A stretch of DNA of 47,530 bases from Planctomycetales bacterium (lineage in GTDB: Bacteria; 4484-113): the NCBI GenBank assembly GCA_030606285.1, contig JAUWGS010000016.1, positions 1 to 47,530 on the forward strand. Reading direction: 5' to 3'. A program made the position numbers and the translations under genes. Positions 21,611 through 36,323 of this stretch are shown one piece after another (the first letter of the stretch is position 1; every line of letters begins with the position of its first letter). The notes under the pieces are model-generated. The model worked only from the letters and a program-made list of their open reading frames with translations. It was not told the DNA's origin and searched no databases.

Positions 21611-21742
21611 ATGTCAGGAACAGTTGCAGACACCTCCAGCAGGTGCGCTTTCCTTGTCTCTGAGCGCGGGCGTTACGTGAAAGGCTGTGTGAGGTGGATG
21701 GGCCGTGACCGGATGGCGCACGCGCTAAGGAGCGGCACTTGA
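21611..21742 (+). CDS. Possible 43-residue small protein coupled to the J-domain gene
   Basis: An ORF from ATG 21611 with a TGA that overlaps the TTG at 21739 (TTGA). The product is basic with two cysteines (SSRCAFLV and VKGCVRW). No family recognised and only a weak ribosome site, so it may be chance; the overlap with the next start is its main support. Confidence 0.3.
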   Translation: MSGTVADTSSRCAFLVSERGRYVKGCVRWMGRDRMAHALRSGT

Positions 21743-23079
21743 GAATGGGACATGGTTTGAAGAACTACTACGTGATCCTCCAGGAAGGACCGGACGCCAC
21801 GTTCCACGATATAAAGCGGTCATACCGCGCGCTGGCCATTGAATGGCATCCGGACCGCAATCCCGGCAACGCGGAAGCTGCGCACAGGATGTCTCTGATA
21901 AACGAGGCCTACGGGGTTCTCTCGGACGAGACGCTTCGGGCCAAATACGACGCAGAGCTGAAGTCCGACCATTTTGTGGAAGCGCAGACGTGGCACATGG
22001 GCGAAACCGAGGGCGTCGGGCTGTGGCCGATGTTCGGTCGTGACTCCGCCCGGATGCGCCGGGGCTCGCATCTCGGACCCGAGAAGCCGATTAAGAAGTG
22101 GACCTTTAACGCCCAAGGCAAGGTGCGCTCTTCTCCGGCTGTGGGGTCTGACGGCACCATTTATGTGGGAACTGATGGGGGATACCTTCTCGCCATCAGG
22201 CCGTATGGCGCAAGGAAGTGGGAATTCAAGGTCGGTGCGCCGATTCGCTCGTCGCCAGCGATTGGCCTGGATGGGAGCATCTACTTCGGGTGCTTCGATG
22301 GCGCGCTCTACGCCCTTGAACCGGACGGCAGCAGGAAGTGGGAGGTTTACACGAAGGAAGAGATTCACGCGTCTCCCCTCGTTGGCCCCGACGGGTTGAT
22401 CTACTTTGGCAGCGGCGAGGGCAAGGTCTACGCGATAAACCCTGATGGCAGCAAGAAGTGGGAGTTTAAGACCGGCTGGCGCGTAAGGTCGTCACCCGCT
22501 CTGTACGAGGACGGTACGGTTTATGTTGGCGGGCTTGACCGCAAGCTCTACGCGATAAGCCCCGATGGGAACAAGGAATGGGAAGTGAGAACCCGCGAGG
22601 GCGTCCATTCGTCGCCCACTGTGAGCAAGGATGGGACTGTGTATGTGGGCAGTAATGACGGTAGGCTGTACGCCATCAATCCCAAGAGCTGGCTGCCTAT
22701 TGGAAAAGGGAAGGTGAGATGGGCCTTCCAGACAGGCCGGGCAATACGCTCCTCGCCTGCCATCGCCGAGGACGGGACCATCTACTTCGGTAGCTACGAC
22801 CATAAGCTGTACGCCGTGACGCCCAGGGGCCGGGAGCGGTGGTCGTTCGCCACAGGCGGAACGATTGAATCATCGCCGGCGGTGTGCCCGGACGGCACGG
22901 TGGTTTTCGGCAGCCTTGACGGCAAGCTGTACGCCGTGAGTTCGACCGGCCGCCTCAAGTGGGAGTTCGAAACCAAGGGCGCGATTGAGTCATCGCCCGC
23001 TGTGGGTGCCGGAGGAACTATTTATGTCGGTTCCAACGATGGCAGGGTATACGCTATCGGTGGCGTGGAGCAGGCCTGA
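21739..23079 (+). CDS. J-domain protein fused to an eight-repeat PQQ-type beta-propeller
   Basis: This 446-residue protein starts with a complete J-domain (about residues 5-70: NYYVILQEGPDATFHDIKRS, then the HPD motif in WHPDRNPG and YGVLSDETLRAKYD). From about residue 113 to the end come eight repeats of about 40 residues of the form SSPAVGxDGTIYVGxxDGxLYAI...W, as in PQQ/WD-like propellers. HPD implies stimulation of a DnaK ATPase; the propeller would supply substrate or partner binding. No signal peptide or membrane helix, so it should be cytoplasmic, whereas PQQ-repeat propellers are more often exported. AAGGAG sits six bases before TTG 21739; ATG 21745 is the alternative. Confidence 0.88.
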   Translation: MRMGHGLKNYYVILQEGPDATFHDIKRSYRALAIEWHPDRNPGNAEAAHRMSLINEAYGVLSDETLRAKYDAELKSDHFVEAQTWHMGETEGVGLWPMFGRDSARMRRGSHLGPEKPIKKWTFNAQGKVRSSPAVGSDGTIYVGTDGGYLLAIRPYGARKWEFKVGAPIRSSPAIGLDGSIYFGCFDGALYALEPDGSRKWEVYTKEEIHASPLVGPDGLIYFGSGEGKVYAINPDGSKKWEFKTGWRVRSSPALYEDGTVYVGGLDRKLYAISPDGNKEWEVRTREGVHSSPTVSKDGTVYVGSNDGRLYAINPKSWLPIGKGKVRWAFQTGRAIRSSPAIAEDGTIYFGSYDHKLYAVTPRGRERWSFATGGTIESSPAVCPDGTVVFGSLDGKLYAVSSTGRLKWEFETKGAIESSPAVGAGGTIYVGSNDGRVYAIGGVEQA

Positions 23080-27373: not shown

Positions 27374-27478
27374 ATGACCCCATCCGACATACTATACCTG
27401 GACTTCGGCGGCGAAGAGCGGGAACGCCGCTATACGCTGGAACTGGCCAAACAGCTAAGAAGGATGCTCAATGGGTAA
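27374..27478 (+). pseudogene. 34-codon truncated copy of the start of the 28.6 kb dehydrogenase gene
   Basis: Reading from ATG 27374, the peptide carries LDFGGEERERRYTLE, identical to residues 9-23 of the gene at 28629, with the two copies aligned codon for codon from their ATGs. DNA identity is high in 27401-27447, then similarity stops and the frame ends at TAA 27476-27478. It looks like the remnant left when DNA was inserted between the hydrolase gene and the dehydrogenase gene, or the start of a lost paralogue. Confidence 0.7.
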
Positions 27479-27751: not shown

Positions 27752-28396
27752 CTACCAAACGCTTTCGTACCTACGCACAAGTTCAGGGCATTTCTTTGCT
27801 AGCTGCGCCAAACACCCCATCCAGCTCTCTTCTCTCAGTTCCTCGTCCGAAACCGCTAGGTCAGTTGATTTCCCAGTAGCGGAGGCGTGGAGAAGGTAAG
27901 CACGAAAGAACAGAATCTCGGATATTGTGATAGGCAGTCCGTATTTGGCGAACATCCGGTGACGGTGAATAGTCCACCATTGAATCCCTAGGTCGATAAC
28001 ACGCCCAAGAGCCTTTCCGAGAAGGAACGCTATGACACCTTGCCAGCCAACTGTGAAGAAACCATACAGAGCTATGGCAACATCAAGAATATATCCCCGA
28101 GAGCCAAACAAGGCTCCTATCCTCGGCAGACCGGGGACTATAGCGCCGGAAATCACAACTACTGTTCCGGCCAGATAGGCGACTAGAGTGAAAAGACCGA
28201 TTTCATATGGGGCGAATGCCCGAAAGAATGATACAGCCCCCACGACGCTAGAGAACATAACTGGGGGCGCTAGTAGCCCTTCCGTCATCCTGAGAACTGC
28301 ATACGCACTGACTTTGGGATGCAAACGTGCCATCAGTGCGAAGGCATAATCCACTGGTAGTCTTATCTTAAGCCCGCCTGGAGTATAGAAAGTCAT
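27752..28396 (-). CDS. Membrane protein of unknown function
   Basis: A 214-residue protein I do not recognise. It has about four hydrophobic segments (around LLAPPVMFSSVVGAVSFF, IGLFTLVAYLAGTVVVISG, LDVAIALYGFFTVGWQGVIA) and a soluble, acidic C-terminal tail with SDEELREESW. The ATG has no ribosome site of its own; it begins six bases after the stop of a 20-codon ORF with a strong GGAGG, so translation is probably coupled. Base composition is lower in GC than neighbours, suggesting acquisition. Confidence 0.65.
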   Translation of the reverse strand: MTFYTPGGLKIRLPVDYAFALMARLHPKVSAYAVLRMTEGLLAPPVMFSSVVGAVSFFRAFAPYEIGLFTLVAYLAGTVVVISGAIVPGLPRIGALFGSRGYILDVAIALYGFFTVGWQGVIAFLLGKALGRVIDLGIQWWTIHRHRMFAKYGLPITISEILFFRAYLLHASATGKSTDLAVSDEELREESWMGCLAQLAKKCPELVRRYESVW

Positions 28397-28628: not shown

Positions 28629-30758
28629 ATGCTTGAGACCCGCATTCTACATCTGGACTTCGGGGGCGAAGAGCGGGAACGCCGCTACACGCTTGAAATG
28701 GGCGACAGCGAGTTCTCCGTGCGCGAAGTCGGCCTGGAGCGCGATCTCCGAAAGGCGGCGCGTGTCCTTACCGACGCGCCGGAACAGCGCATAGCCCTTT
28801 CAGGCCTTACGCTTCACTTCTACTTCGAGGGCAAGGAGTACTGCCACCGGCGACTTTCACGACTCCTTGCGCCGAGCCTGCGCGGCCGGGAGCTGAGCGA
28901 CGGCAGCCTAGTGAAGCGCACGCTGGAGCGCTATTTGGTGGATGAGGCAATCCGCCAGCTGGCGGTGAACTTCCGAGAGAAGCGAACTCTCGTGCTTTCC
29001 GCTATTCCCCGCTACGGTGCTGCCGAGGTTCTGAGTTCCCGGACGGACAGGATCGTCTTTGGTGATCTGCTCTACGGGTTCAGGCTGGGCGTGCCCCTTA
29101 CTTCAATGGCAGCGCTGCGGAAAGCTGCGCCTGCGCTGTTGAGAGCCGTGGTCAGCACGCCAGTGTCGTGGTTCGACCCCGGGGCCCGGATGTTCGCCCG
29201 TAGGATGCCGCGCTTCCGCTGGTACTTCTACTGGGCGGAAGTGATTCTGGGCAGTATGCAGCATCTGCGCCGTTACGCGCCGGGTAAGTTGAGCGGCAAG
29301 ATTGTGTTCACCAATCTTACCAACGATGACGATCTGGAGTTTCTCCGCAGCCGGGATGTCGCGACTGTGGTCGGGTTGCTGCCCCGCATCAGCGAAAGGC
29401 GCGTGAGTACCGGCCTGCTCGAACTGATGCTCAAGCAGTTGTTGCGCGGCAAGGACACGGAGGGCGACTGGGAGGCTGCGTTCCTCAACTTCTTCCTGCG
29501 CCACCACTTCGCTCCGGAAATCGAGAGCTTCCATGCCGAGCCTGACGTAGAGCCTGCGCTCATTGACATATCCGCTACAGCAGACCTCCCGGGTCCCAAG
29601 CCCGCTCCGGCAGAGGAATACGAGGCTGCGCCCGGTGACGGTGACGAAGAAGGGCGCTTCGCGTTCGTTGTGCACCCGCTGTTCTATGACCAGTTGATAC
29701 AGCATCCGGTTCTCAAGGCACTTGACCGCATAATTCCATCTGCGTGGCTGGAGGAACTGGCACCCGTTGTGGTGTCTCCGCCGATTATCGGCACGGTCAA
29801 GGATATCGTCTCTGCCACCGGCGCTCGTGCCCGGGGATACATCTACGCCATCCCCATGACACCTAGAATGATGCTGAAGTATCCTCCTGAACGGACGTAC
29901 CGCCGCATCCTTCATATCACCCGGCACGCCGAGCGTCTGGGCGCGGGAATTGTCGGCCTGGGCGCGTTTACATCGGTTGTTGGCGATGCCGGTGTGACGG
30001 TGGCGCGACGCAGCCGCATCGGCATAACAACGGGCAATTCGTTCACTGTTGCGGTTACCATCCGGACCCTGGCTCAGGCAGCCGACCTGATGGGCATCGA
30101 GTTGAGCCGGGCAACGGCGTGCGTCATCGGGGCTACAGGCAGCATCGGAAGCACCATCTGCCATCTGCTGGCAAGCGAAGTGCGGGCGCTCACGCTGGTC
30201 TCGCCGCGTCCCGAACGCCTGCTGGCGCTGTCCAATCACCTGCGTGAACGCTTCCCCGGTGTGGAGCTAAGAATAGCCCGCTCTCCCGATGAGGCGCTTG
30301 GCCGGGCAGATGTTGTAGTCACTACGACCAGCGCGGTGGGATCCGTGGTGAAAATGCCGCTGCTGAAGCCCGGCGCTGTTGTGAGCGACGTTGCGCGCCC
30401 GCCGGACATCAGTCCGAAGGCTGCAGCGGAGCGGCCGGACGTTTTGGTAATCGAGTCAGGAGAGGTGCAGCTTTTCCCCGGCGCGCAACTGACTACCAAT
30501 CTGGGATTGCCGGAGGGCGTCATCTATGCCTGCCTCGCGGAGACGATTCTGCTGGCGCTGGAAAGGCATTACGATCATTTCACGCTCGGCAGGGAGATTA
30601 CAGAGGAGAGGGTGCGGCACATCAACGAGGTTGCGGACAAGCACGGAATGAAGCTGGCTGGAGTCCGGTCGTTCGGCAAGGAACTCAGCGACGAGGACGT
30701 CCTCGCGGTGCGCCAGCGGGCGGAGGATGCGCGCTGGCCTGTGAGCGGAGGGGTGTGA
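28629..30758 (+). CDS. Fused quinate-dehydrogenase-like / acyl-ACP-reductase-like protein
   Basis: A 709-residue protein with two parts. Residues 1 to about 310 resemble a family annotated from memory as quinate 5-dehydrogenase-like (TLVLSAIPRYGAAEVL, IVFGDLLYGFRLGVPL). Residues about 335-709 closely follow cyanobacterial long-chain acyl-ACP reductase: PRMMLKYPPERTYRRIL, GLGAFTSVVGDAG, ITTGNSFTVA (from 466), the Rossmann loop VIGATGSIGS (499-508) and IYACLAETILL, where Cys635 aligns with the catalytic cysteine that carries the acyl group. Aldehyde formation from an acyl thioester with NADPH is therefore plausible but inferred. No aldehyde-deformylating oxygenase is nearby. A truncated copy of its first codons lies at 27374. 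Confidence 0.75.
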   Translation: MLETRILHLDFGGEERERRYTLEMGDSEFSVREVGLERDLRKAARVLTDAPEQRIALSGLTLHFYFEGKEYCHRRLSRLLAPSLRGRELSDGSLVKRTLERYLVDEAIRQLAVNFREKRTLVLSAIPRYGAAEVLSSRTDRIVFGDLLYGFRLGVPLTSMAALRKAAPALLRAVVSTPVSWFDPGARMFARRMPRFRWYFYWAEVILGSMQHLRRYAPGKLSGKIVFTNLTNDDDLEFLRSRDVATVVGLLPRISERRVSTGLLELMLKQLLRGKDTEGDWEAAFLNFFLRHHFAPEIESFHAEPDVEPALIDISATADLPGPKPAPAEEYEAAPGDGDEEGRFAFVVHPLFYDQLIQHPVLKALDRIIPSAWLEELAPVVVSPPIIGTVKDIVSATGARARGYIYAIPMTPRMMLKYPPERTYRRILHITRHAERLGAGIVGLGAFTSVVGDAGVTVARRSRIGITTGNSFTVAVTIRTLAQAADLMGIELSRATACVIGATGSIGSTICHLLASEVRALTLVSPRPERLLALSNHLRERFPGVELRIARSPDEALGRADVVVTTTSAVGSVVKMPLLKPGAVVSDVARPPDISPKAAAERPDVLVIESGEVQLFPGAQLTTNLGLPEGVIYACLAETILLALERHYDHFTLGREITEERVRHINEVADKHGMKLAGVRSFGKELSDEDVLAVRQRAEDARWPVSGGV

Positions 30759-33715: not shown

Positions 33716-34660
33716 TCACATGCTCTTTAAGAACTTCGGTCCGTTGAAGTGAATCATGTGATCCGGTATCGCGGCGATCCAGACTTCCGTTTCCCAGGCA
33801 ATGTCAGCTATATGTTTCTTGAACTCAACTATATCGGGAAACGCAGTCACGTAGATGCGCTGGAACGAGCATTTCGAGAAAATCTCTTCGAGTTCCTGCA
33901 ATCGCTTAGGCGAAACTGGACCGTGTGATGTGACAGCTTCAACAACGAAAAGGCGACAACTGCCTTTATCAAGCAGGAGTACGTCTGGGAGCTTGTCATG
34001 CTCACTGATCGGCACAGACAACTTCTTCAGCTCTTGCTGGGCGACATACAGAGTCTTCTGTGCAGTATCTCCCATATACAGGAGTTCACCACCGGGGGCA
34101 AACCTAGGCGCGAAATCCTCAACAACGCGAGCCTGTAACAGGCTGTGGGCTCCTGGTGACAGCTCCAGTTTCTGACCGTAAGGGAGGGTTAGCGGAACCA
34201 TTCTAACTTGTCTCTTCTTTCGATAGACATCGACGAGCGCAGGTTGGCTGCTGAGGAATGAGTCAATAGCCTTAGCGTAGCTGCCAGAATCATATGCTTG
34301 GAGAACCTTTACGACTGGCTCACTGAGAGCATAATGTGCTTTCGGGCTGTTTGTTGGCAGGTTAGGGTTATCTGGATTGTATTCTGCTATGCCGCCTTGG
34401 ACAAACTGATGCAGGACCTGACGGCGCACGGATTCTCGTGTGTTAGGTTTGTACTCGCGCCCATACTTGTTTGACATGAACGACATAATGCCCTTAGTTA
34501 TGGTTCTACTGATTCTTTTAGCATCAGTCCACTCGGCGTCTGGTCCTAGGTCAGCGAGCGCTAGTAGTACTAGCGCTGACATCTCATTCTGCTGCGCTTC
34601 AGGGAGTCCGAGTTCTTTTAATATCTCCTGAGCGGCTTTGATTTTATTAGTTTTGCTCAT
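33716..34660 (-). CDS. BsuBI/PstI-family restriction endonuclease
   Basis: A 314-residue type II restriction enzyme. The N-terminal third looks like a winged-helix DNA-binding part; the catalytic region has the family blocks YMGDTAQKTLYV (GDTA 197-200), HDKLPDVLLL (224 onward), VVEAVTSHGPVSPKRLQELE and TAFPDIVEFKKHIADIAWET, ending HMIHFNGPKFL. BsuBI and PstI recognise CTGCAG; that this enzyme shares the target is inference. ATG 34660 overlaps the methyltransferase stop by 14 bases, so the two are coupled. Lower GC than the flanks supports horizontal acquisition. Confidence 0.93.
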   Translation of the reverse strand: MSKTNKIKAAQEILKELGLPEAQQNEMSALVLLALADLGPDAEWTDAKRISRTITKGIMSFMSNKYGREYKPNTRESVRRQVLHQFVQGGIAEYNPDNPNLPTNSPKAHYALSEPVVKVLQAYDSGSYAKAIDSFLSSQPALVDVYRKKRQVRMVPLTLPYGQKLELSPGAHSLLQARVVEDFAPRFAPGGELLYMGDTAQKTLYVAQQELKKLSVPISEHDKLPDVLLLDKGSCRLFVVEAVTSHGPVSPKRLQELEEIFSKCSFQRIYVTAFPDIVEFKKHIADIAWETEVWIAAIPDHMIHFNGPKFLKSM

Positions 34661-36323
34661 TGTCAAGTGCTCGCTCCATTTCCAGCAATTCTATAGGGAC
34701 TTTTAGAACTTGGCGTAGCATTGCGTTAGCACTAGCGTGTTCCCATCTGGTATTTTTCTTCAGCCAGAGATTCCCAAGACGCTTGATATTATCAAGGCTC
34801 GGCAGCGGTAACGATCTCAATTCTGTCGCGCTTACTTGGGTATTGCCGTTCAGTATTCGGAAATACCGGTCCAAGATGGGGCTGTTGAGCAGCAACGATA
34901 GTCCAACCCCCTCCTCTGTACTTAGCGAGCTGTCATAACGATAAATGTAGTTCAGATGATTCTCCAGTCCTATGTGGGTTAGCGATGAGAACTCACTAGG
35001 AGACAGCACGGAAGCTACAATCCTCGATGGCCATTCCTTGGGGCTGAACCTGCGTACCAGTACGCAGGTTCTCAGTGGTACTAGTAATTCACGGCTTCCT
35101 TCGCAAACGGCAATTGCTTCAGGCTTTTTCTGAGCCTTCTTGGAAGGCCAAGTTGTCTGCATTGGGCCAATGTGATGTGACCAAAGTAATGGAACGGCTT
35201 TTCCGCTCCTGTAAGCACTGAGCGAACTGAGATAATGTTTCGCTCGAAAAGGAACAACAGGACCAGTTGACACTCTCAGTCCTGAGCCACCCAATCTACG
35301 GGGCCATGAATCAACATAGTCTAGAAGCCGATCGTCTCTTTGACTAGTGGGTAGACGGAGCGGGTGAATTGGTGACGTTGCGTCAAGTATCCTGTCCAAA
35401 GATACTTTTCTGAATCGGGATTTTTCCAGGTCCCTCTTGCCTACGCTAGAACTAACAGATACCAGGTAGCGTTTTGCCGGATTTCTGGGCATCTTCAGTG
35501 TCTTTAGGATCACGCTTTCCTGGAGGACATCATCTGATGCAAACGTCTCTGTGCGAGAATCGAAAACGTGAATGTGGGCTGGCTGCACTATGCGAAAAAA
35601 CTCTCTGCGGAATCGAGCAAAATAGTGACCGGAACAGAAGCTTCGAGGAGTTATAAATACCATTTGCCCGCTAGGCTTTAGCAAGTATGCTGATAGCATC
35701 ATGAACAGCGCATAGGTGTTGGATACACCCGCTCCGACGTTCTTCGCAATCGCTGCCCTTGAGTCGCTGTTGCGCAGTTTTATATACGGAGGATTGCAGA
35801 TGATTACATCGAAAAGGTCATTGGTCGAGTCCTCTAGGTCTGGATGAAAGGCAAGTCCAGCCCTCGCCACAGTAACGAAATCGTCCTCACGTATGTCGAA
35901 CTCCAGAGCTACATCCCTGCTAGAGCAGAATCTGTGTGCTTGCTCTAGCGCCAACCCTGCGAGTTCTACCATGTGCTGGTCTATGTCATAGCCTACGACT
36001 TGGATCTTCCTGCACGCCTTTGATGCAGCTAGCCTTTCTATGAGCGCGCATGTCAATACCGCGGTGCCGCATCCAGGATCAAGGATTCTTACGCTGGGAC
36101 GTACATCGACCAAGAGGGCCATAAATTTCGCCACTGGGAGCGGTGTAAAGAACTGCCCGACACACTTCCTGCGATCCCGGTCCACAAGCTTTGCAGCTTG
36201 ATCTGACAGTTTGGCTGCCCATGTTGCAGGCGATGCACCCTCTACTAGCTTGGGAAGTGCGGCTACTTCCAGTGACCTGCTGGTCAGGCCCGCGTCAGCT
36301 TCACTTCTGGATCTGCTTTGCAT
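34647..36323 (-). CDS. DNA adenine-N6 methyltransferase of the BsuBI/PstI system
   Basis: A 558-residue N6-adenine methyltransferase. It begins with the QFFTP motif (GQFFTPLPVAKFMALL), SAM motif I is ILDPGCGTAVL (80-90), and catalytic NPPY is at 177-180. A long C-terminal target-recognition region follows, with QVSATELRSLPLP typical of the family. It protects host sites from the neighbouring endonuclease. A TATAAT ends eight bases before the ATG, so its mRNA is leaderless or nearly so; the methyltransferase is first in the operon, which lets protection appear before cutting. Confidence 0.93.
   Translation of the reverse strand: MQSRSRSEADAGLTSRSLEVAALPKLVEGASPATWAAKLSDQAAKLVDRDRRKCVGQFFTPLPVAKFMALLVDVRPSVRILDPGCGTAVLTCALIERLAASKACRKIQVVGYDIDQHMVELAGLALEQAHRFCSSRDVALEFDIREDDFVTVARAGLAFHPDLEDSTNDLFDVIICNPPYIKLRNSDSRAAIAKNVGAGVSNTYALFMMLSAYLLKPSGQMVFITPRSFCSGHYFARFRREFFRIVQPAHIHVFDSRTETFASDDVLQESVILKTLKMPRNPAKRYLVSVSSSVGKRDLEKSRFRKVSLDRILDATSPIHPLRLPTSQRDDRLLDYVDSWPRRLGGSGLRVSTGPVVPFRAKHYLSSLSAYRSGKAVPLLWSHHIGPMQTTWPSKKAQKKPEAIAVCEGSRELLVPLRTCVLVRRFSPKEWPSRIVASVLSPSEFSSLTHIGLENHLNYIYRYDSSLSTEEGVGLSLLLNSPILDRYFRILNGNTQVSATELRSLPLPSLDNIKRLGNLWLKKNTRWEHASANAMLRQVLKVPIELLEMERALDNEQN

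What the first reader, a model, noticed from the sequence alone, without database searches (positions are those of the whole stretch)
28629..30758. Fusion of a quinate-dehydrogenase-like domain with an acyl-ACP-reductase-like domain
Residues 335-709 align along their length with cyanobacterial acyl-ACP reductase, including the TTGNS block, the GATGSIGS loop and the cysteine (Cys635, YACLAET) that forms the acyl-enzyme. The N-terminal 310 residues look like a separate dehydrogenase-annotated family. Such a fusion outside cyanobacteria, with no deformylating oxygenase nearby, suggests an unexplored aldehyde-forming route (wax, alcohol or membrane lipid) or a new substrate.
Basis: partly seen in the sequence, partly recalled or inferred. 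Interest (0 to 1): 0.7.

Follow-up and report, generated by a model that had tools for sequence, protein, structure and literature searches.

The report
Double-barrelled acyl-reductase-like fusion protein
This gene makes a 709-residue protein whose second half is very probably an enzyme that turns activated (thioester-bound) acyl groups into aldehydes, and whose first half is an unnamed partner that appears to have the same fold but lacks the catalytic parts; the pair is old and widespread in bacteria, but nobody seems to have tested what it does.

Summary
In detail: window 28629-30758 (+) is one intact 709-aa gene. Residues ~340-700 belong to the acyl-ACP reductase (AAR) superfamily: the AlphaFold model matches AAR 6JZQ at Z 33.5 (2.7 A, 326 residues) against about 14 for shikimate dehydrogenases. 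Cys635 aligns with AAR Cys294; its motif is kept in 104 of 105 relatives. It is not a cyanobacterial-type AAR (107 bits against a 449.7 cut-off; no aldehyde-deformylating oxygenase in 10 genomes of the phylum) and scores higher against the reductase part of PigE. The N-terminal half has no Pfam or NCBIfam name; 'quinate dehydrogenase' is not supported. Modelled alone (pLDDT 92.7), its best PDB matches are AAR and a related carmabin domain (Z 12.5-13.4; next fold 9.7), yet the Gly-rich loop and a conserved Cys are missing. The halves are neighbours or fused in 71 of 80 named loci; in one Bacillota-type phylum 54 of 54 genomes with the reductase carry the partner. Fusion occurs once on the reductase tree, uniting this phylum with Chloroflexota and others. 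Best reading: a thioester reductase with an obligate, catalytically altered AAR-fold partner. Substrate and pathway are unknown; a Chloroflexota subclade's operon points to lipids. New variant of a known kind.

The parts
28629..30758 (+). Whole fusion gene, 709 aa
   Evidence: Uninterrupted ORF; matched in all 10 genomes of the phylum, in two cases as fragments at contig ends; 85% identical in the same-genus genome
28629..29538 (+). N-terminal domain, residues 1-303: unnamed family, predicted AAR-like fold without the Gly-rich loop or a conserved catalytic Cys; keeps D49, D91-G92, E100-R101, D146, R242, E265
   Evidence: AF2 pLDDT 92.7; Foldseek and VIA best matches AAR and carmabin TAD; conservation; no Pfam or PDB sequence hit
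29538..29639 (+). Disordered linker, about residues 304-337
   Evidence: pLDDT below 50
29649..30755 (+). C-terminal AAR-superfamily thioester reductase domain, residues 341-709
   Evidence: VIA Z 33.5 to 6jzq over 326 residues; NCBIfam hits to the reductase part of PigE and to AAR
30129..30149 (+). GATGSIG nucleotide-binding loop, residues 501-507, equivalent to AAR 162-168
   Evidence: alignment mapping; G501-I506 invariant in 55 fused proteins
30531..30533 (+). Codon of Cys635, equivalent to AAR Cys294 (acyl-enzyme nucleophile)
27374..27446 (+). Partial duplicate of the gene's own 5' end (59 nt, 88% identical to 28643-28701)
   Evidence: the insert between the copies is absent in the same-genus genome L025

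Best explanation
The protein is a two-domain enzyme built from two AAR-type folds. The C-terminal domain is an active thioester reductase: Cys635 attacks an acyl-ACP or acyl-CoA thioester to form an acyl-enzyme, and NAD(P)H bound at GATGSIG reduces it to an aldehyde. The N-terminal domain is a diverged AAR-fold partner that has lost the Gly-rich loop and the catalytic cysteine. It is needed by the reductase, either as a structural or docking half of a pseudo-dimer or to handle the substrate or the aldehyde at its own conserved acidic/arginine site. In other lineages the two are separate, usually adjacent genes; they were fused once in the ancestor of the lineage that includes this phylum and Chloroflexota. 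Shown here by computation: gene integrity, family placement, conserved cysteine, predicted folds, co-occurrence, single fusion on the tree. Inferred: catalysis, cofactor, substrate, role of the N half.
For: C half: NCBIfam E 5.4e-60 (PigE profile, reductase part) and 1.1e-30 (AAR); model matches AAR and carmabin TAD chains at Z 31.9-33.5, next fold Z 14.8; Cys635 = AAR Cys294, GATGSIG = 162-168, R655 = R314; Cys motif conserved in 104/105; related domains have experimental reductase evidence in PigE (PMC8341465) and TamH (PMC9594044). N half: own model pLDDT 92.7; the nine AAR/TAD entries head the list at Z 12.5-13.4 against 9.7 for the next fold; Foldseek E 1.9e-5 and 2.4e-5 for TAD and AAR; secondary-structure elements follow the same order as in the C half (my reading); no GxGxxG-type loop in 45 N sequences and no conserved Cys at the equivalent helix. 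Pairing: N next to or fused with C in 71 of 80 loci, 54 fused; where not adjacent, N is elsewhere in the genome in three of three such genomes checked; 54 of 54 C-bearing genomes also have N among 91; 13 of 14 in Chloroflexota. Single fusion: 100/100 support, one change on the C tree; one branch of the N tree (100/98) parts stand-alone from fused N. The genome has acyl carrier protein genes.
Against: No assay exists. Sequence profiles of N and C show no significant similarity (hhalign probability at most about 0.5%), so 'N is an AAR-fold paralogue' rests on predicted structure. N also occurs without a detected C in 8 of 91 genomes, and in 9 more with only a transaminase-linked reductase, so N may have another job. 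N keeps invariant charged residues, so it need not be inert. Homologues differ in cofactor (TamH uses NADH, AAR NADPH), so the cofactor is unsure.
Confidence: 0.62

Rival explanations
1. The N half is a true second enzyme: it binds a nucleotide or small substrate at its conserved D91-G92, E100-R101 and D146 and converts or delivers the aldehyde or its precursor, so that the fusion channels an intermediate as AAR-ADO or PigE do.
For: D91, G92, E100, R101 and D146 are at 95-100% across N domains that otherwise share only about 25% identity with the window's; N exists alone in some genomes and as a second, slowly evolving copy (57% mean identity against 37% for the fused N) throughout the phylum; AAR-type reductases are typically coupled to an aldehyde-consuming partner (PMC7089970, PMC8341465).
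Against: No known catalytic motif or family hit; the usual dinucleotide loop is absent; the fused N evolves faster than C, unlike a core catalytic domain.
Confidence: 0.25
2. The C half acts on an amino-acid or other non-lipid thioester or ester, as glutamyl-tRNA reductase does, and the protein belongs to core metabolism rather than lipid synthesis.
For: The gene is in all genomes of its phylum and common in the sampled Bacillota-type phylum (74 of 91 genomes match), sits beside housekeeping genes (cdaA-ybbR-glmM, pth, dapA in the window; coaX/dusB and greA/lysS in Bacillota, named from sequence by inspection), and in other genomes of the phylum is followed by a class IV aminotransferase.
Against: Glutamyl-tRNA reductase profiles score only about 28 bits against 204 and 107 for PigE and AAR; in a Chloroflexota subclade the gene neighbours a PlsC-type acyltransferase, patatin, PHA regulator and Fe-alcohol dehydrogenase.
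Confidence: 0.25
3. It is simply a shikimate/quinate-type dehydrogenase fusion, as its PF01488 hit and the first reader's label for the N half suggest.
For: PF01488 scores 27.6 bits, above its cut-off of 24.3, over residues 489-599.
Against: That stretch is the generic nucleotide-binding part; AAR and PigE profiles cover nearly the whole half and score far higher, fold Z 33.5 against about 14, and the N half has no such hit at all.
Confidence: 0.03

Closest known systems
Cyanobacterial acyl-ACP reductase (AAR, TIGR04058, PDB 6JZQ)
   Same: Fold of the C half (Z 33.5, 2.7 A, 326 residues), catalytic Cys294 = Cys635, GATG.IG loop, R314 = R655
   Different: 27% identity; far below the equivalog cut-off; carries an extra N-terminal domain; no ADO partner in the phylum; AAR Y247 is an invariant Arg here (R590)
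PigE / TamH / KecF transaminase-reductase fusions (COG5322 reductase domain)
   Same: AAR-type thioester reductase domain with the catalytic Cys, outside cyanobacteria, fused to a partner; PigE is the best NCBIfam profile hit
   Different: The partner there is a PLP transaminase; here it is the unnamed AAR-fold N domain. On the tree PigE and the long, probably transaminase-linked rows lie outside the clade of fused reductases
Carmabin pathway TAD (PDB 9E4S)
   Same: C half Z 33.2; N half Z 12.6
   Different: Part of a natural-product assembly line; 19% identity to the C half; known here only from PDB titles
Stand-alone N + C gene pair of Bacillota and Armatimonadota (stand-alone N proteins are, from memory, often annotated 'quinate 5-dehydrogenase' in databases)
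   Same: Same two protein families, usually adjacent and in the same order
   Different: Separate genes; 14 Bacillota-type loci, most with apparently long frames, were re-read and all were separate

Membership tests
AAR superfamily thioester reductase (C half) | AAR three-part fold over the whole domain | tested here: met
   Z 33.5, rmsd 2.7, 326 aligned residues to 6jzq
AAR superfamily thioester reductase (C half) | Nucleophilic Cys at the AAR C294 position, conserved in relatives | tested here: met
AAR superfamily thioester reductase (C half) | GxxGxxG dinucleotide loop | tested here: met
   GATGSIG 501-507; G501-I506 invariant in 55
AAR superfamily thioester reductase (C half) | Reduction of acyl thioester to aldehyde | not testable with these tools
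   needs an assay
Long-chain acyl-ACP reductase proper (TIGR04058) | Score above the curated cut-off | tested here: not met
   107.1 bits against 449.7
Long-chain acyl-ACP reductase proper (TIGR04058) | Works with aldehyde-deformylating oxygenase | tested here: not met
   PF11266 in 0 of 10 genomes, control rang
PigE/KecF transaminase-reductase fusions | Fused PLP transaminase domain | tested here: not met
   N half has no transaminase hit; its predicted fold is AAR-like
Shikimate/quinate dehydrogenase (either half) | Closest by profile and fold to AroE/YdiB rather than AAR | tested here: not met
AAR fold (N half) | Nearest known fold is AAR, clear of the rest | tested here: met
   Z 12.5-13.4 for the nine AAR/TAD entries, next fold 9.7; predicted model only
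AAR fold (N half) | Detectable sequence homology to the C half | tested here: not met
   hhalign probability 0.2-0.5%
AAR enzyme (N half) | Catalytic Cys and Gly-rich loop | tested here: not met

The most novel reading that the evidence does not exclude
A core, ancient two-protein reductase in which one AAR fold keeps thioester chemistry and its diverged partner (same fold, chemistry lost or replaced) is obligatory, so that aldehyde formation is controlled or coupled by an enzyme-pseudoenzyme pair; fused into one chain in this phylum and Chloroflexota, and serving a still unknown aldehyde-dependent pathway in many bacteria.
Probability: 0.4. Interest if true: 0.72.

Novelty: new variant of a known kind. 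Interest (0 to 1): 0.52.

Why it matters
The pair was found, whole or in part, in every genome of this phylum and in most sampled genomes of one Bacillota-type phylum, beside housekeeping genes, yet one half has no Pfam or NCBIfam name and I found no paper that treats the pair. If it makes aldehydes from acyl-ACP or acyl-CoA it would show a widespread, unrecognised aldehyde step in lineages without cyanobacterial alkane synthesis, and give biotechnology a new family of AAR-type reductases. The inferred enzyme plus altered-copy arrangement is testable with two purified proteins from a separate-gene species such as Moorella.

Tried and rejected
Wax-ester synthase (PF03007) search in the phylum: no hit, but no control genome rang, so uninformative. 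Profile-profile comparison of N with C: not significant, although the non-significant alignment is colinear (SDGS with TTGNS, Rossmann strand with Rossmann strand). The search tool's long 'open frames' in Bacillota suggested further fusions; reading 14 such loci showed separate genes, so the list 'with 640-850 aa ORF' must not be read as fusions. The idea that the fusion is special to this genome was dropped. Literature searches for the pair and for a Chloroflexota wax-ester reductase found no description; no paper on the carmabin TAD structure was found in the library. Fold search: absence of other folds from the lists is not evidence against them.

Full report
The gene. Window 28629-30758 (+) is an uninterrupted 709-codon ORF. 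The gene lies in a 2.3-Mb, 36-contig genome of a small phylum represented here by ten genomes; all ten carry a match, intact except where contigs end. In the window the gene follows cdaA, ybbR, glmM and a metallohydrolase and is followed by pth eight bases later, then dapA. In other genomes of the phylum glmM often precedes it and a class IV aminotransferase follows.

The C half. NCBIfam gives the PigE profile at E 5.4e-60 (its positions 49-357, the part that PMC8341465 identifies as an AAR-like thioester reductase) and AAR TIGR04058 at E 1.1e-30, both below their whole-family cut-offs. PF01488 (shikimate/quinate dehydrogenase) just passes its cut-off over the generic nucleotide-binding stretch. 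The AlphaFold model of the whole protein (55 fused relatives, pLDDT 86.9, pTM 0.77, only the 304-337 linker and the last residues poor) matches AAR 6jzq at Z 33.5 over 326 residues and the carmabin TAD at 33.2; malic enzyme, shikimate dehydrogenase and others follow at 14.8 or less. Using the printed alignment, AAR Cys294, the acyl-enzyme residue (PMC7089970), falls on Cys635; AAR 162-168 on 501-507; the NADPH-phosphate arginines R193 and R314 on R530 and R655, while R189 falls on Pro526. R655 is invariant among 55 fused relatives; R530 is not among the strongly conserved positions, so NADPH against NADH is open. TamH, a homologous domain, uses NADH (PMC9594044). Cys635 is invariant in the 55 fused proteins and its motif is present in 104 of 105 domains, fused, separate or in longer proteins (the exception is L078).

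The N half. It matches no Pfam family, no NCBIfam family and no PDB sequence, even as a 45-sequence profile. Modelled alone from 45 relatives it gives pLDDT 92.7, pTM 0.91. Foldseek puts carmabin TAD and AAR first (E 1.9e-5, 2.4e-5); VIA ranks the nine AAR and TAD entries first at Z 12.5-13.4 (241-260 residues, 4.0-4.5 A), with glutamate dehydrogenases and LacI-type proteins next at 9.7. The order of helices and strands is the same as in the C half (my reading). The Gly-rich loop is replaced by a motif such as SGxxRYG, and no cysteine is conserved where Cys635 would lie. Sequence profiles do not confirm homology, so the shared fold is an inference from prediction. N is not merely decayed: D49, D91-G92, E100-R101, D146, R242 and E265 are kept at 93-100%.

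Pairing and fusion. A scan of named genomes with the C-domain alignment returned the 80 best loci of at least 579. N lies directly upstream in 71: fused in 54 (Chloroflexota, Myxococcota, Acidobacteriota, Calditrichota, Wallbacteria and this phylum), separate in 17, nearly all Bacillota and Armatimonadota (one of the 17, L046, is a Chloroflexus-type copy whose frame is broken, and taxon labels of metagenome bins can be wrong). In three genomes where C stands alone, N is elsewhere in the genome (G014, G016, G017). In 91 genomes of one Bacillota-type phylum C never occurs without N (54 of 54; 71 have N; Fisher p 2e-10, not corrected for kinship and tallied from the printed table, which was cut at its end); in Chloroflexota 13 of 14. 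On the C tree all fused rows form one clade (100/100) and fusion changes once (LG+G4, AAR root on a long branch); on the N tree one branch (100/98) parts the stand-alone N proteins from the fused ones. Because the loci are the best hits to this phylum's C domain, rarer fusions elsewhere could be missed. All ten genomes also have a second, stand-alone N gene. Within the phylum the fused N is much less conserved (mean 37% identity) than the C half (55%) or the stand-alone N (57%).

Clues to function. The genome has acyl carrier protein genes but no aldehyde-deformylating oxygenase. Around one Chloroflexota subclade's fusion there are, on the same strand and close by, a PlsC-type acyltransferase (9 loci) and an NAD-epimerase (5 loci), and in the vicinity a patatin, a PHA-accumulation regulator and an Fe-alcohol dehydrogenase, which fits lipid or storage metabolism. 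Chloroflexus and Roseiflexus make wax esters (PMC4400912), but I found no gene assigned to the reductive step. In Bacillota the pair sits between coaX/dusB and greA/lysS with a small HTH protein (gene names by inspection except the HTH hit). In the window itself nothing points to lipids. I therefore commit to thioester reduction by the C half (about 0.75), an AAR-fold partner role for the N half (about 0.7 for the fold, lower for the role), and leave the substrate open.

Closest known systems. AAR with ADO, and PigE, TamH and KecF, all couple an AAR-type reductase to a partner that uses the aldehyde (PMC7089970, PMC8341465, PMC9594044, PMC6498172, PMC10829540). This protein works like them in its C half, but is not a member of the AAR equivalog and lacks the transaminase; its partner is different and unnamed. 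I rate it a new variant of a known kind.

Noticed in passing
window 27374-27446 and 28643-28701: The gene's first 59 bases or so exist twice (88% identical), 1.25 kb apart; the insert carries a 214-aa ORF on the other strand (27752-28396) with no Pfam or NCBIfam match. The same-genus genome (L025) lacks the insert, and there the gene starts right after the metallohydrolase.
   Followed up: partly
window 21739-23079: A DnaJ domain is fused to a PQQ/ACSF4-type beta-propeller, an unusual combination.
   Followed up: no
window 33716-36323 (-): A PstI/BsuBI-type restriction endonuclease next to an Eco57I-like N6 DNA methyltransferase.
   Followed up: no
L004 (own genome C8:94081-94896, -) and L015-L023: All ten genomes of the phylum have a second, stand-alone copy of the N-domain family, slowly evolving and closer to the Bacillota type (the window genome's copy is about 48-50% identical to many of these), with no obvious conserved neighbours.
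   Followed up: partly
L121, L122, L123, L124: 845-1080-aa proteins with a distant copy of the reductase domain in their C-terminal part, probably transaminase-reductase fusions of the KecF type (transaminase part not tested here); in genome G089 one lies about 1.4 kb from an N gene, and nine Bacillota-type genomes have N plus such a protein but no stand-alone C.
   Followed up: partly
L046: A contig labelled Candidatus Gracilibacteria carries a Chloroflexus-type copy with a broken frame, probably a binning error.
   Followed up: no
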